From Corythucha ciliata (lineage: Eukaryota > Arthropoda > Insecta > Hemiptera > Tingidae): DNA of 64,000 nucleotides. The stretch is from contig CM075943.1 of assembly GCA_038030265.1 (NCBI GenBank), positions 45,880,001-45,944,000 on the forward strand, in the 5' to 3' direction. Below the pieces are notes generated by a model that saw only the letters and a program-made list of their open reading frames with translations, made no database searches and had not been told where the DNA came from. The translations under genes were made by a program, and so were the position numbers. Of the stretch, positions 23,507 to 59,898 are shown in pieces (positions within the stretch are counted from its first letter, which is position 1; each line of letters starts with the position of its first letter).

Positions 23507-26500
23507 TTAAATTCTCATGCCACATTCTTTGAGGAAGTCTAGAATTTTTTTATAAACTGTGAGGGTGGAACTGCCAATCAGAGATTCATAATTTACCGGT
23601 TGCGGAATTACTTTTGAGAGGTTCATGAATAATTTATTTCTTTGGCTTGAATATTTATTGCACAACATTACTAGGTGGCATAAGTCCTCTTCATCGCCGC
23701 AAACAACGCAATTGGGATGCTCCCTCTGTCCGATCCTATGTAGGTAAGCACCACACAGACCATGGTTGGTGCGTAAACGAGTAATGACTGAACACTCAGC
23801 TTTGGTTAGGTTCATATCTGTAAACCATGGGAACTGCCTAATGGAAGGATTGATCTTGAAATAAAATGCTCCTGATGTCACCACCAGCAACGAGTTCTGC
23901 CATTCTTCCCGGAAACGTGATTTGTGGTAGCATTTTGCATCTGATATTGGTAGATTAACATTTACTTCACTTCCATTAGATGCTGCTGCTTTAGCCAAGG
24001 AATCTACGATTTCATTCCCATTTATACCACAGTGGCCCTTTACCCATCCGAAATATATCCTAATACCACAGGATAACTCAATTTCGCCTAGCTTGTCCAA
24101 GATATTTGCAACTATATAGTTCGAATTTGAAGTTTTGCCTATTCCTTCCAGGCTATGAATAGCACTAGACGAATCAGACAGAATGCATACATTTTCAGCA
24201 AGATTAATGTTATTCTTTATGTATTCTAGCGCTTTGAACAAGGCGTAAAGTTCAGCTGAAAAAACGGAAAATTTGGGGGGCAGTTTATACATTTCACTTG
24301 TGTTGCCTTTCGGGTCATAAATTGCACATCCTACTTCACCATTTATTTTCGAACCATCGCTAAATATGAGATAAAGTTTTTCGTGTATGTTGGCTATGTC
24401 TGATTGAAATACCGAGTCGGCGTAAGCTTTTGGGAAGGTTGAATAATCCCGGAGATTACGTATTCGTTTTTGGAGTTTCATAGAGTCGAAGCTTATACTG
24501 GAGAAAGGATGTTTATCCGAGGTGTGCATGCTACGGATATCTTGAACTGTTCTCAAGTACGCATCAATCAAAGGAGGAGATTTCAATTTTTGCCAAAAAC
24601 GCTTAGTCAGAACTTTGATATTTACTGAGTGTATTTTCTTGTAAAGAGAGCTACAATGAGAATAAAGATTTATTACATGGTTCGTGGCTAACCTTTCCCG
24701 GCGAATATTTAAGGGTGGTTCACATGCTTCCACCTGCATGGCATTTATTGGTGTGGATGGAAGACAACCTAAGCATACACTGATACACTTGTTTTGGAAA
24801 ATGTCAAGCCTCCGGAGGTGGCAGTTACTCGCAGCGCCATAGAAGATGCTTCCAAAATCCAAGGTGTTGCGTATGCAAGCTCGATAAAAAAGTAAAGCAG
24901 TGGACGGGTCAGCGCCCCACTTATTGGCAGCAAAGCATCTCAGAATATTGAATAACCGTTCCCCTTTAATAAGTAGGGAATCAATGTGTGATCTCCATAG
25001 TAGTTTTCGATCCAGGACGATGCCCAAGAATTTTACTGTGTGTGCAACGCTCAACGCCATACCCCCCAAATTAATTTCACTTATAATAGGCAGGATTCTT
25101 TGTTTTGAGAAAGGGCAGACTACTGATTTCATTGGAGAAATCGTCTGATCGTTACTGGCAGCCCAATCCATAAATAAGTGAACACCATTATTTAGAACCT
25201 CAATACACGACTCAATCGACTTCTGAGATGTGTAAATGCATACGTCATCCGCGAATTGCGTCACGCTAACCTGGGGAGGCAACCCCTGTTGTAGGTCGTA
25301 AGCGTAAACGCAATATAAAAGTGGGCTTAATATACCTCCTTGAGGCAGACCTCGATAAGTCCAGAATGGGCCAAAAATGGAGTCCCCAATCTGTAAATAG
25401 TTCACTCGTGAAATTAAAGTCTTATAGATATTTTGAATGAGAGTTGATGGAATTCCTATATTTATCATTTTTTGGACCAAAACATTGACGTCGACGCTGT
25501 CATATGCTCCAGAAATATCAAAGAATACCGCGAGCAAAGGTTTATGGTCTGAGAATGCGTTGTGTATATCAAAAATTAGCTTGGTTTGGGCGTGATGGAC
25601 TGACTTACTTTTCCGAAATTCGAATTGAGATTCTGGCAGCTTACCATTGCTTTCCAGCCACCACTGCAGCATGTTCTTAATCATTCGTTCATAGGTTTTA
25701 AGTACACATGATGTTAGGGCAATGGGTCGGTAAGATGTGGCGTGGCCTGGATCTTTATTAGGTTTTAATATTAGAATAATACGACTCTTTTTCCACGAGT
25801 GAGGGAAGTCTAGTTTTTTAGTCAAAATTCTGTTGAATATATTTAAGAGGGTCAATTTAGAAGAAGAAGGTAGGTTATCGAGCATGGAGTAATGGACTTG
25901 ATCCATTCCTGGCGCAGAGTTATTCACCGTTTTCAGAGCATTGCTCAATTCCCTAATTGAAAAAAGTTCTGTGATAGGAGAATTATACGCTGGCGCTTCA
26001 AAATGACTATTTGGAACTGGACCTTGAGGGAATAAATTATGATAAAATCATCTGTCCCTTCTCCTTGAAGGACGTGGGGATTAGGATTAGACCACATATT
26101 CTTAAAATGTTTCAGCATTGACCATATTTCTTTTACAGGTGTTTGACTATTTAAAGAAGAGCAATACGTTCTCCAGGAGGAACGTTTTGCTTGCAATATT
26201 GCTTTTTGTACCTCCGCTGTCTTGCGTTTGTATAAAACGAAATTTGGTAAGGATGGTGAGTGTTTGTATGTGGCGAGGGCCGCTTTCTTTTCTCGTACTG
26301 CTTTGTCACACTCCGACGTCCACCAATGTTTAGTTAGCTTTTTCGAATTTTTGGAGACCTGTGCATGGGTAGGGATAGCTGCTTCACAGGCATTATTCAA
26401 ACACTTTTCAAACATTTCGTACGTTACCGTATTAGATTCCATTTCAGAAGTATACTTATCCATGAGTTGTGAGAAAAGAGGCCAATTAGCCTTTTTAACA

Positions 26501-27217: not shown

Positions 27218-28015
27218 TTAGTAGTCCATTTCTTCCTCATTTTGACCCCTGGAATGATCACCGCGGGACACATCATCGATATCTTTATTTTCTTGGACCA
27301 TGTTAAGCAAAACTTTTCCGATGCTGTCAATCATCTCTTTTTGAGATAAGTGGCTGCCCCGGATGATGGAAGCTAATTTTTTCAAGATAATACTATACTT
27401 TTCTGCCTCTGAGGTCGCATGAGGGTTAGGTACCATCTGGATTTTCTCGCGAGGATCAGTAATTAATTGTTGTTGTTCTTTAACGAAAGGGACTGAGGAA
27501 TGCCCGGAATTTTTAGCTGAACGGTGCGTCCTGACAAACGTTTTGCGGAAGCGGCGCCGATTAGATTCGCTTGAACTAGGAAGAGCAGGAAAGTTTTGGT
27601 CATATTCGAGGGAGTCACTGAGATTATTTAAAGCGTCAAACTTGTTACTTGTAGACACTACTTTTGAAAAGGAGACGTCCAAGTACTTTTTCCGGTTCTC
27701 TTCTACAGCGGCTTTGTAGGCCTCACATTCCCTACTGTTTGCTAGATGACGTAGAGAGCAAAGAGGGCAGCTTCCTTCGCTGTCCGATTTGGGCCAATCC
27801 TTTAGAACGTGATTATCACCACATTTCAAGCAACGTTGTCTACTTCGGCATTGCACCGCAGTATGATTAAACCGAAGGCACTTACCACACTGGCGGACTG
27901 ACGGAATGAATGGCCGAACCCTGCAGGGAAATGTTAAATTCGGTGCCATCCACTGATCCACCCCTTCCCCATGTGTAATTTCATTTATGATTCTGGACCG
28001 GCAGCTGGCGCACAT
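27218..28015 (-). pseudogene. I-type LINE ORF1, gag-like, 5'-truncated
   Basis: This ORF (about 265 codons) encodes the nucleic-acid-binding partner of ORF2. Cys/His knuckles are clear: CGKCLRFNHTAVQC, then CLKCGDNHVLKDW (an altered CCHC), then CPLCSLRHLANSREC. Only the 'IPSVRQCGKC' tail of the domain that normally precedes the knuckles remains, and a stop lies just upstream in frame, so the N-terminal half is missing. A serine- and charge-rich C-terminus ends at TAA, one base before the ORF2 ATG (TAATATG). That arrangement would allow ORF2 translation by termination-reinitiation, which is an inference. Confidence 0.8.
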
Positions 28016-28063
28016 TTCATCGCTTTTTCAAAAATCTACCTCCTCCTCACATTAATAATTTGC

Positions 28064-28157: not shown

Positions 28158-30777
28158 TCACGGAAGGATTTGAGTCTTCTTTGGCCTCCCTTTTATCTTT
28201 GCCTTCGACGATTTCCTTAATAAAGAAAAAAAACAACAAAAAAACACGAGTTTATATCAGTTCTGGTGGGGTGGCAGAGGGAAGGGAGTTGTCTTACCAA
28301 GTCAAAGTAATTATTAATTCGAGTAAAAACGTCACGGCCGACAGTCCAACGCCGGCCAGGAAAATGTAGATGACGTAACGAAATTCGGTTAGCCCGACGC
28401 TTACGAAGTTACGTCTTTTCGAATGACAAACGGGTTTGTCCGTCAATAGGTTGTCCGAAATTCTCTTCCAGTGACCTGATTCTCGTTGCCAGCAAAGCCT
28501 TTTTTTGTGTGTGTGTGTTATAATTAGTGAGTGGCGAACAAAATAAAGTTGTTTACGGTGAAGGTGGGGGGATTTACATTCGGGCGAAATGTTCCCTCAG
28601 ACCGGATTTCCTTTGAACGCCCACCGATAGATTGGGAATTCTAAAGAGATTTATGTCATCTAAATCGCACTTTTCTTCCTCGAAATAGTAATGGCCGATC
28701 ATTCGGTAGGCGACGTTGACTTCAGTCTGAACACACACAACAAATGAACCTGCAGCTGCAGGCACACTGTTCGTTACTTACATTAAAGCCGTACTGTCGA
28801 CTTCTGACTAAGTCGACTCCATTTCTAGCAAAGCAAAACGCGGATCTTCCTTGGGGCTTGATTTTCTTTTCGTTCAACTTGCCGAATAATTTCGGGCCCA
28901 CCCTTATGGACTCCTTTTGTTTCGACAATGTTTAAAGTTTCTTTGACTTTAATTTTTCAACAATTTAATAGACGCAGTTACCTACTTTTAAATATAAGTG
29001 ATTGTACCCAGTGTCAAGAATTTTCAATGTCAGAGGACTGTCGACGAAATCGTTCAGATTTTTAATGACCGGAGACGTTGACTGAAGCATGGCCACGAGT
29101 TTGGCGGAGTACGATGTGTACAGAAATAGAGCGCACAGTGATATGACCAAAAGAACAATTCTGACCGAATTACCTTGCGGGCTAAAGTGTGTTCCTAATA
29201 TGGACGGCGGAAATTTAATTTAGTTTTTTTTTTTTTAACTGACCCTCCCCGTTTCGCCCACCTTGCTGGCATATGAATCCGACGACTATTGACACGACGT
29301 CGGCAATGGACAAACGTTCTTGAAATAAAGGCCAACGACTGTTTCGTGTTAGAAAAAGTTCCAAGCATAGCATGGCTACACTGATGACTATGATGACTCC
29401 TGTGGCGATCCAGACAAGTTCGGTGAACGGTAGGAGGTAAATGTTGTAAATATAGGACTGTGTGGGCTGGCGGAAAACTATGCCCGTCCTGTGGACAGGC
29501 GGGGAGACGTCTTGAAGACAGAAAAAAAAAGAATTCGTTATAGTTACAAATTACTTGAATTCAAACGTGTCCAAAACGTAATCAACGGCTATTCGTCTGT
29601 CATTTCTCATTATAAGCCCGGTGACTGACACGTCAGCTTCGTTTCTCTGCATTTTAGCAAGAACACCATCAGTGTACATTCCATTTTCATCTATCACATA
29701 GCCCACATCGTCCACGACCATTAAATTTATTCTGGAAATGCCCCAAAATCATTTAAACCGCTTGATGGTGTTCAACTAGTGTGGATGTGGTGGTGGAGGG
29801 GGGGGGGTTGTTACGTGAAATTGAGCTGGCACCCGAGTAGCTTAATCAGAGGCCACTGAATTTTAGATGTAAAATCATACTCGGGATGCCTCAAATCTTC
29901 GGGCGTTTTTGCCACGTCCTGATATGCGAGCTATTAACAACAACAAATGTGGAATTGATAGAGTGATCTGCGGTGGTGGTGGTGGTGGTGGTGGGGGGGG
30001 GGAGGCAACAGAAACTAACGCTGACAACCGCGGTTATTTCGCTGCCCTGAAAATTGTATCGCTCGTCGCGTCGATCCACTAAAACCAACGTTCCGTTCAT
30101 CGCGGTGAAGCCCGCGCTTAAAAAAATCACCGGTTTCGCCTCCGTTATTTTATAGACTTCGGTAAAATGAATTGTCGACGACGTGTAATTCGCTATAGTG
30201 ACGCAACTGCCTGGCAAAACGTAGGCGTTTTGAATTGCCACCCAAACTTCAGCGTCATTTCCTTTTTCTTCGACCGCCCTCGTTGTAAACAACCACTCAG
30301 TGTGCGGGTTGAATAATTTTTTATCGGAAATCTGTCAAAGTTTAATTTTGATCATTAAAATACAAATTCTGACCAAACCCAGTGGGCATGGTGGAAGGGG
30401 AGAACCAACCGCGTTAATTAAAGCACAACTTTGAGGACAAGTCAAGTCTATTACAGCGCCGTTCCTTTGCTCGTTTTTCCAGTCGAGGAAATGAGATGAA
30501 AAGACCACGGTAATGCTTTGATTCGACAAATATTTCAAGTTCCTCGCTCTCTCGCCTGTGTGATTAAGACAAAAATGAGGGGGAGGAGAGGGGATTACAA
30601 AATACGTTTACGTGTAAATTGAATAAACAACTTACTCGGGTCCCCGCAATCAAAAACAACGATGGAATAAATGTTTTTTAGTTTGAAAAATTGCCCGACG
30701 TACTGAACGTGAATCGAGGCGAACGCCTGTTGTAAGCAAGCCGCAAACAGAACGTGACGGATAAAGTTGCCGAACAT
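28158..30777 (-). CDS. Ionotropic receptor, IR75-like, 11 exons
   Basis: A chemosensory-type variant ionotropic glutamate receptor, expected in the plasma membrane as part of a ligand-gated cation channel. Exons: 30777-30636, 30555-30410, 30331-30020, 29930-29815, 29731-29555, 29488-29262, 29194-28986, 28913-28782, 28726-28578, 28498-28298, 28215-28158. All ten introns are GT-AG, 55-89 bases, and phases agree, giving 622 residues. Residues 1-21 form a signal peptide. The S1 half is near 201-310 (GLIMRNDRR with the arginine typical of IRs), M1 about 322-340, pore with FICQQGTHF about 367-377, M3 with YTSYSAKLVAMLQ about 395-410, S2 about 411-560 (FEEEKCDLDDINLF, IR75-like), and M4 about 578-602. 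No stop or frameshift. The weakest splice calls are the acceptors at 28913 and 28498. IR75 is my best subfamily; another divergent IR is possible. Confidence 0.88.
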
Positions 30778-59398: not shown

Positions 59399-59898
59399 NN
59401 NNNNNNNNNNNNNNNNNNNNNNNNNNNNNNNNNNNNNNNNNNNNNNNNNNNNNNNNNNNNNNNNNNNNNNNNNNNNNNNNNNNNNNNNNNNNNNNNNNNN
59501 NNNNNNNNNNNNNNNNNNNNNNNNNNNNNNNNNNNNNNNNNNNNNNNNNNNNNNNNNNNNNNNNNNNNNNNNNNNNNNNNNNNNNNNNNNNNNNNNNNNN
59601 NNNNNNNNNNNNNNNNNNNNNNNNNNNNNNNNNNNNNNNNNNNNNNNNNNNNNNNNNNNNNNNNNNNNNNNNNNNNNNNNNNNNNNNNNNNNNNNNNNNN
59701 NNNNNNNNNNNNNNNNNNNNNNNNNNNNNNNNNNNNNNNNNNNNNNNNNNNNNNNNNNNNNNNNNNNNNNNNNNNNNNNNNNNNNNNNNNNNNNNNNNNN
59801 NNNNNNNNNNNNNNNNNNNNNNNNNNNNNNNNNNNNNNNNNNNNNNNNNNNNNNNNNNNNNNNNNNNNNNNNNNNNNNNNNNNNNNNNNNNNNNNNNN
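59399..59898. other. Assembly gap, 500 N
   Basis: Exactly 500 undetermined bases, a customary placeholder length, so the true distance is unknown. Confidence 0.98.

What the first reader, a model, noticed from the sequence alone, without database searches (positions are those of the whole stretch)
28158..30777. Complete 11-exon IR75-like chemoreceptor hidden as short exons
Ten GT-AG introns of 55-89 bases can be removed with consistent phases to give 622 residues with signal peptide, S1, M1, pore, M3, S2 and M4. The joined pore motif FICQQGTHF and YTSYSAKLVAMLQ appear only after splicing. A simple frame scan would show only fragments. No lesion is visible despite dense transposons on both sides, which suggests selection.
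Basis: partly seen in the sequence, partly recalled or inferred. Interest (0 to 1): 0.75.

Follow-up and report, generated by a model that had tools for sequence, protein, structure and literature searches.

The report
Bug IR75 chemoreceptor gene, short introns
The window holds an apparently intact gene for an IR75-type chemoreceptor of a true-bug-like insect, cut into about eleven short exons; it is a real and rather diverged member of a well-known receptor family, not a new kind of thing.

Summary
On the minus strand, 30777-28158, ten GT-AG introns of 55-89 bases splice to 622 residues. Introns 1-9 are each reproduced base for base by a homology-guided splice aligner, by 3 to 10 of 10 guide proteins; intron 10 by 1 of 10. 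Reading through intron 10 stops right after W604, so exon 11 is unproven.

The protein matches Cimex lectularius (40% identity) and Rhodnius IR75d (36%). It falls in one hemipteran clade (100/99). A 33%-identical paralog elsewhere in the genome has eight introns at the same residues and phases. It keeps the S1 arginine (R284) reported for acid-sensing IRs and the S2 acidic residue (E489). Most likely it is an acid-sensing tuning subunit; ligand and partner are inferred.

"Selection" is only partly supported. The frame has no lesion, which argues against more than about 1.1-2.5% of neutral drift, but this is the most diverged of eight clade rows compared: it keeps 77 of 108 otherwise invariant sites. 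Verdict: a new member of a known family, low interest.

The parts
30636..30777 (-). exon 1 (start codon at 30777-30775; N-terminus)
   Evidence: intron 1 found by 3 of 10 guides
30410..30555 (-). exon 2 (N-terminal region)
30020..30331 (-). exon 3 (N-terminal region, IR75A_N-like)
29815..29930 (-). exon 4 (residues 201-238, S1 region)
29555..29731 (-). exon 5 (S1 with R284)
29262..29488 (-). exon 6 (end of S1, M1, first part of the pore)
28986..29194 (-). exon 7 (pore end, M3 with SYSAKLVAML, start of S2)
28782..28913 (-). exon 8 (S2)
28578..28726 (-). exon 9 (S2, begins with residue 488; holds E489)
28298..28498 (-). exon 10 (end of S2, M4); if intron 10 is not spliced the frame ends at TAA 28296-28294 after W604
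28158..28215 (-). putative exon 11 (basic 18-residue tail, stop); weakly supported
   Evidence: found by 1 of 10 guides

Best explanation
It is a protein-coding gene for an IR75-clade variant ionotropic glutamate receptor of a hemipteran, probably heteropteran, insect. Shown by computation: gene structure (introns 1-9), family, clade, retained R284 and E489, no disabling lesion. Suggested: a co-receptor gene in the same genome with a CREL-like loop (judged by eye). Inferred: two copies of this tuning subunit pair with two copies of an IR8a-type co-receptor in the cilium of a sensory neuron; an organic acid binds between S1 and S2, with R284 contacting the carboxyl group, the lobes close and open the M3 gate, and cations depolarise the neuron. 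I put about 0.9 on the gene and family and about 0.5 on acid sensing with IR8a.
For: Exact splice model; Pfam domains; homologs Cimex 40% E 1.4e-193, Rhodnius IR75d 36%, Rhodnius P0003 35%, Diaphorina 28%; junction support for introns 1-9; control scores; eight introns at the same guide residues and phases in the C2 paralog; tree, 9-row clade 100/99 and 11-row clade 99/96 against 9 other rows; R284, E489, QQG pore. Passages of PMC7882480: the S1 arginine is kept in acid-sensing IRs and diverged in amine-sensing ones, and IR75a acts with IR8a. Passages of PMC6472016: the CREL loop marks IR8a and IR25a; a CREL-like stretch with an N-glycosylation motif lies in L038.
Against: The IR75A_N model scores 24.3 bits, under its cut-off of 27, and Lig_chan-Glu_bd 23.9, under 30. 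The S2 threonine, reported as kept in Drosophila IR75a and IR75c, is N438 here. Only 77 of 108 otherwise invariant clade sites are kept, the lowest share of the eight rows compared. PMC9801554 (passages) says the IR75 lineage is contracted or absent in some non-heteropteran hemipterans, and few IR75s were found here, so the heteropteran label is not firm. No expression or function data.
Confidence: 0.82

Rival explanations
1. An IR75-clade gene that has recently lost function or expression: still open-reading, but no longer under selection.
For: Most diverged of eight clade rows compared (77 of 108 invariant sites kept; with six references 0.66-0.71 against 0.83-0.99 for the other seven); lysine K405 in the M3 motif where the iGluR-like rows have asparagine; transposon frames near by, an open frame beginning 130 bases downstream of the stop.
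Against: No stop, frameshift or lost splice site; neutral drift beyond about 1.1-2.5% divergence would very likely have left one (with assumed indel rates). The gate position also varies in the three paralogs and in three other IR rows.
Confidence: 0.12
2. A working tuning IR of the IR75 clade with another ligand class or co-receptor than acids with IR8a, or with a non-olfactory role.
For: High divergence; S2 threonine absent; PMC9801554 (passages) names aliphatic amines as well as short-chain fatty acids for the Ir75 clade.
Against: R284 is kept, which PMC7882480 (passages) links to acid sensing.
Confidence: 0.3
3. A chance reading assembled from unrelated frames, or a transposon product.
For: Transposon frames surround it.
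Against: Score 938 against a control maximum of 58; E 1.4e-193 to Cimex; intron positions shared with three paralogs.
Confidence: 0.005

Closest known systems
Cimex lectularius LOC106669347 isoform X2 (P0001), a record holding two IR copies
   Same: 40% identity over 86% of the query; same domains; returns introns 2-9 exactly as guide
   Different: The record is two receptors in one frame (908 residues); the window gene is a single receptor with K405 instead of N in the M3 motif
Rhodnius prolixus ionotropic receptor 75d (P0002) and P0003
   Same: 36% and 35% identity, same clade, return introns 2-9 and 1-9 as guides
   Different: Window gene has a longer branch (1.08 against 0.22 and 0.55)
Drosophila IR75a/b/c acid receptors
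   Same: Family architecture; S1 arginine kept (literature passages)
C2 paralog in the same genome (L029, minus strand)
   Same: Introns 2-9 at the same guide residues and phases; a first intron of phase 1 as well, placed with the window protein as guide
   Different: 33% identity; no intron 10 in the model; higher score with the Cimex guide (1132 against 938); groups with Apolygus lucorum P0008 (92/97)

Membership tests
Ionotropic glutamate receptor superfamily / insect IRs | S1, M1, pore, M3, S2, M4 order with Lig_chan domain | tested here: met
   Lig_chan 6.3e-17 over 323-587; profile of six clade proteins matches GluD1 over positions 174-579; hydrophobic peaks at M1, M3, M4
Insect IRs (tuning type) | No iGluR-type amino-terminal domain and no CREL insert | tested here: met
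   No ATD family among the Pfam matches up to E 1; no insert of about 30 residues at the start of S2 in the alignments
IR75 subfamily | Groups with named IR75s in a tree | tested here: met
   Clade with Rhodnius IR75d, 100/99. That is the only row named IR75 by a source; the tree has no Drosophila sequences and no named IR41a, IR21a, IR40a, IR68a or IR93a, and its own-genome iGluR rows are rough models
IR75 subfamily | IR75A_N domain over Pfam cut-off | tested here: inconclusive
   24.3 bits, cut-off 27. Of eight other proteins scanned, 3 exceed it (C7 paralog, P0001, P0002), 2 score below it (C2 paralog 26.7, P0008 20.8) and 3 have no match at E 0.01 (P0003, P0004, P0007)
Acid-sensing IRs | S1 arginine that binds the carboxyl group | tested here: met
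   R284 aligned with the iGluR arginine
Acid-sensing IRs | Functions with IR8a and responds to acids | not testable with these tools
   A gene with a CREL-like stretch exists in the genome (L038, judged by eye); its name IR8a is from recall
Drosophila IR75a/IR75c | All three ligand residues R, T and D/E | tested here: not met
   R284 and E489 present, T replaced by N438; T is absent at that column in all 10 other IR75-group rows aligned

The most novel reading that the evidence does not exclude
In a bug lineage whose IR75 set looks very small (two close members found), one of the two survivors has diverged fast and carries a lysine in the channel gate motif, so it may have a changed gate or ligand class rather than be an ordinary acid receptor.
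Probability: 0.12. Interest if true: 0.35.

Novelty: new member of a known kind. Interest (0 to 1): 0.12.

Why it matters
It shows that a real multi-exon gene can be read out of transposon-rich insect sequence with introns of 55-89 bases, and it supplies one more IR75 for comparing chemoreceptor evolution across bugs. The search of the 5.8-billion-protein set, which reaches only word-sharing candidates, returned nothing closer than 40% identity, so the gene may be unannotated. It opens no new question of principle.

Tried and rejected
Splicing exon 5 to the nearest acceptor (29510) was rejected because it puts the next exon in the wrong frame (frames); the acceptor at 29488 keeps the frame, and all 10 guides chose it. 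Exon 11 was not accepted as certain. dN/dS was not tried: the nearest paralog found is 33% identical. A structure prediction was not run: the spliced protein is not a letter-for-letter translation of the window, which the tool asks for. Species naming was left open: the three protein searches went to receptors, the COX1 copy could not be compared, and a look for lace-bug genomes (listing only) settled nothing. A count of the motif TTAGG in the window was uninformative (97 seen, 122 expected). IR8a could not be sought by name; L038 and L042 were called IR8a-like and IR25a-like from recall, and the CREL-like stretch was seen in L038 only. The ten-row tree and the twenty-row tree both left the place of the window protein inside the clade open. 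Paper searches were seen as listings; only passages of five papers were read.

Full report
What was claimed.

Is it there? Yes. Splicing at the ten sites gives 622 residues with compatible phases; exons, introns and phases are listed. The spliced protein carries Lig_chan (6.3e-17) and weaker IR75A_N (2.7e-5) and Lig_chan-Glu_bd (4.6e-5) matches, the last two below their curated cut-offs. With the three bug guides (P0001 first half, P0002, P0003) it returned introns 2-9 exactly, and intron 1 with P0003, whose N-terminus is long enough; the Diaphorina guide returned introns 3-10 and one junction that is not in the model. With ten guides the exact hits for introns 1-10 are 3, 7, 6, 9, 10, 10, 8, 9, 9 and 1 of 10; guides that do not cover a region cannot support it, and six of the ten proposed at least one junction outside the model. 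The score of 938 for the Cimex guide compares with a maximum of 58 over 32 control runs (16 stretches, both strands) and 54 over 20 shuffles.

What remains doubtful is the end. If intron 10 is not removed, the split codon reads TGG and the next is TAA, so the protein ends at W604, just after M4 (sequence). The paralog on contig C2 has no intron there in its models and its frame reads on into a basic tail. Exon 11 also gives a basic tail, but only one distant guide calls it. A signal peptide was not shown.

What it is. The relatives found in a 5.8-billion-protein set are Cimex lectularius LOC106669347 (40%), Rhodnius IR75d (36%), a second Rhodnius protein (35%) and a Diaphorina citri protein (28%). 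A search with an alignment added only a distant iGluR, P0006; one with the C2 paralog added Rhynocoris fuscipes and Apolygus lucorum proteins. These searches score only candidates that share exact words, so they are not exhaustive. A maximum-likelihood tree of 20 rows puts the window protein with eight rows (seven proteins; Cimex counts twice) in one clade (100/99) and with two more genes of the same genome in a wider one (99/96), apart from nine iGluR and other IR rows. Branching inside the clade is not resolved. Only one row bears the name IR75 from a source; there are no Drosophila sequences and no other named tuning IRs, so the subfamily name rests on that label, the weak domain match and the clade.

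Gene structure is conserved. With Cimex as guide, introns 2-9 of the window gene fall at guide residues 34, 138, 177, 233, 309, 378, 419 and 469 with phases 0,0,2,2,1,0,0,2. The C2 paralog (33% identity) has all eight at the same residues and phases. The C7 gene at 32.79 Mb has seven of them exactly and lacks the one at 419. The C5 gene has seven of the same phases, five at the same residues and two within two residues, and also lacks the one at 419. With the Rhodnius guide the window gene and the C2 paralog again share eight introns at the same residues (the C2 model adds one doubtful intron at each end), while the C5 and C7 models are poorer and add unlikely introns.

Setting. The window lies in a 400.9-Mb genome of 57 contigs, with COX1-like copies in the chromosomes. 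The relatives found are bugs, so a hemipteran source is inferred, heteropteran being more likely than not. Around the gene lie reverse transcriptase, RNase H, integrase and other transposon-type frames.

How it probably works. Alignment to iGluR-like genes of the same genome shows the S1 arginine (R284), the S2 acidic residue (E489) and the QQG pore; the S2 threonine is N438. According to passages of PMC7882480 the arginine is kept in acid-sensing IRs and diverged in amine-sensing ones, and IR75a acts with IR8a; passages of PMC8575457 describe IR75a and IR75b as organic-acid receptors. Passages of PMC6472016 say that a loop of about 30-35 residues near the start of S2, with one glycosylation motif, marks the co-receptors IR8a and IR25a; a stretch that looks like it is found in gene L038 (judged by eye). 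Hence an acid-sensing tuning subunit is the leading model; ligand and partner are inferred.

Selection. With 4.2% of random substitutions giving a stop, and splice sites, start codon and frameshifts counted, about 1.2-2.8 lesions are expected per 1% neutral divergence, so the clean frame argues against more than about 1.1-2.5% of neutral drift (indel rates of 0-0.1 per substitution are assumed). Against strong constraint: the window protein keeps 77 of 108 sites that are invariant in seven other clade rows, or 0.66-0.71 with six references, where the seven others keep 0.83-0.99; the Diaphorina row was left out of this count. So the gene was under selection until recently and may still be, but it is the most diverged of the eight rows.

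Compared with the known. The gene belongs to a family described in many bugs: passages of PMC9801554 give 13 IR75 members for Rhodnius, 19 for Triatoma infestans, 12 for Cimex and 10 for Oncopeltus, and a table row, cut in what I saw, appears to give 7 for Halyomorpha; they also say the lineage is contracted or absent in some non-heteropteran hemipterans. PMC6249893 (passages) gives 24 in a water strider. Here two close members and two relatives were found, with a search that works exon by exon and can miss diverged genes.

Noticed in passing
G000 contigs C2 44.002-44.005 Mb, C5 49.463-49.466 Mb, C7 32.786-32.789 Mb and the window: Two close IR75 genes and two relatives were found, against 10-24 IR75s reported for five other Heteroptera (and apparently 7 in a sixth); possibly a reduced set, but the exon-wise search has limited reach.
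   Followed up: partly
window 29194-28986 (residue 405): M3 motif reads SYSAKLVAML, lysine where the iGluR-like rows and the other bugs' clade rows have asparagine; the C2 paralog has tyrosine, the C5 and C7 genes alanine.
   Followed up: partly
window 27218-28027, 23507-26047: An open frame without Pfam match begins 130 bases downstream of the gene's stop, on the same strand, followed by a reverse transcriptase and RNase H frame; perhaps one retroelement.
   Followed up: no
P0001: The Cimex record joins two receptor copies in one frame; the second lacks the N-terminal part, perhaps a fused gene model of tandem copies.
   Followed up: no
L043 (C1) and L044 (C2): Nearly the same iGluR-like sequence lies on two chromosomes, with almost the same predicted intron lengths over a long stretch.
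   Followed up: no
L026 (C2 28.40 Mb) and seven further matches on contigs C1, C2, C5, C6, C7: Chromosomal stretches match COX1; the longest reads 447 residues without a stop under the invertebrate mitochondrial code, so a fresh mitochondrial insertion or an assembly join; the C1 match has no stops under the standard code.
   Followed up: no
window 59399-59898: 500 bases read N.
   Followed up: no
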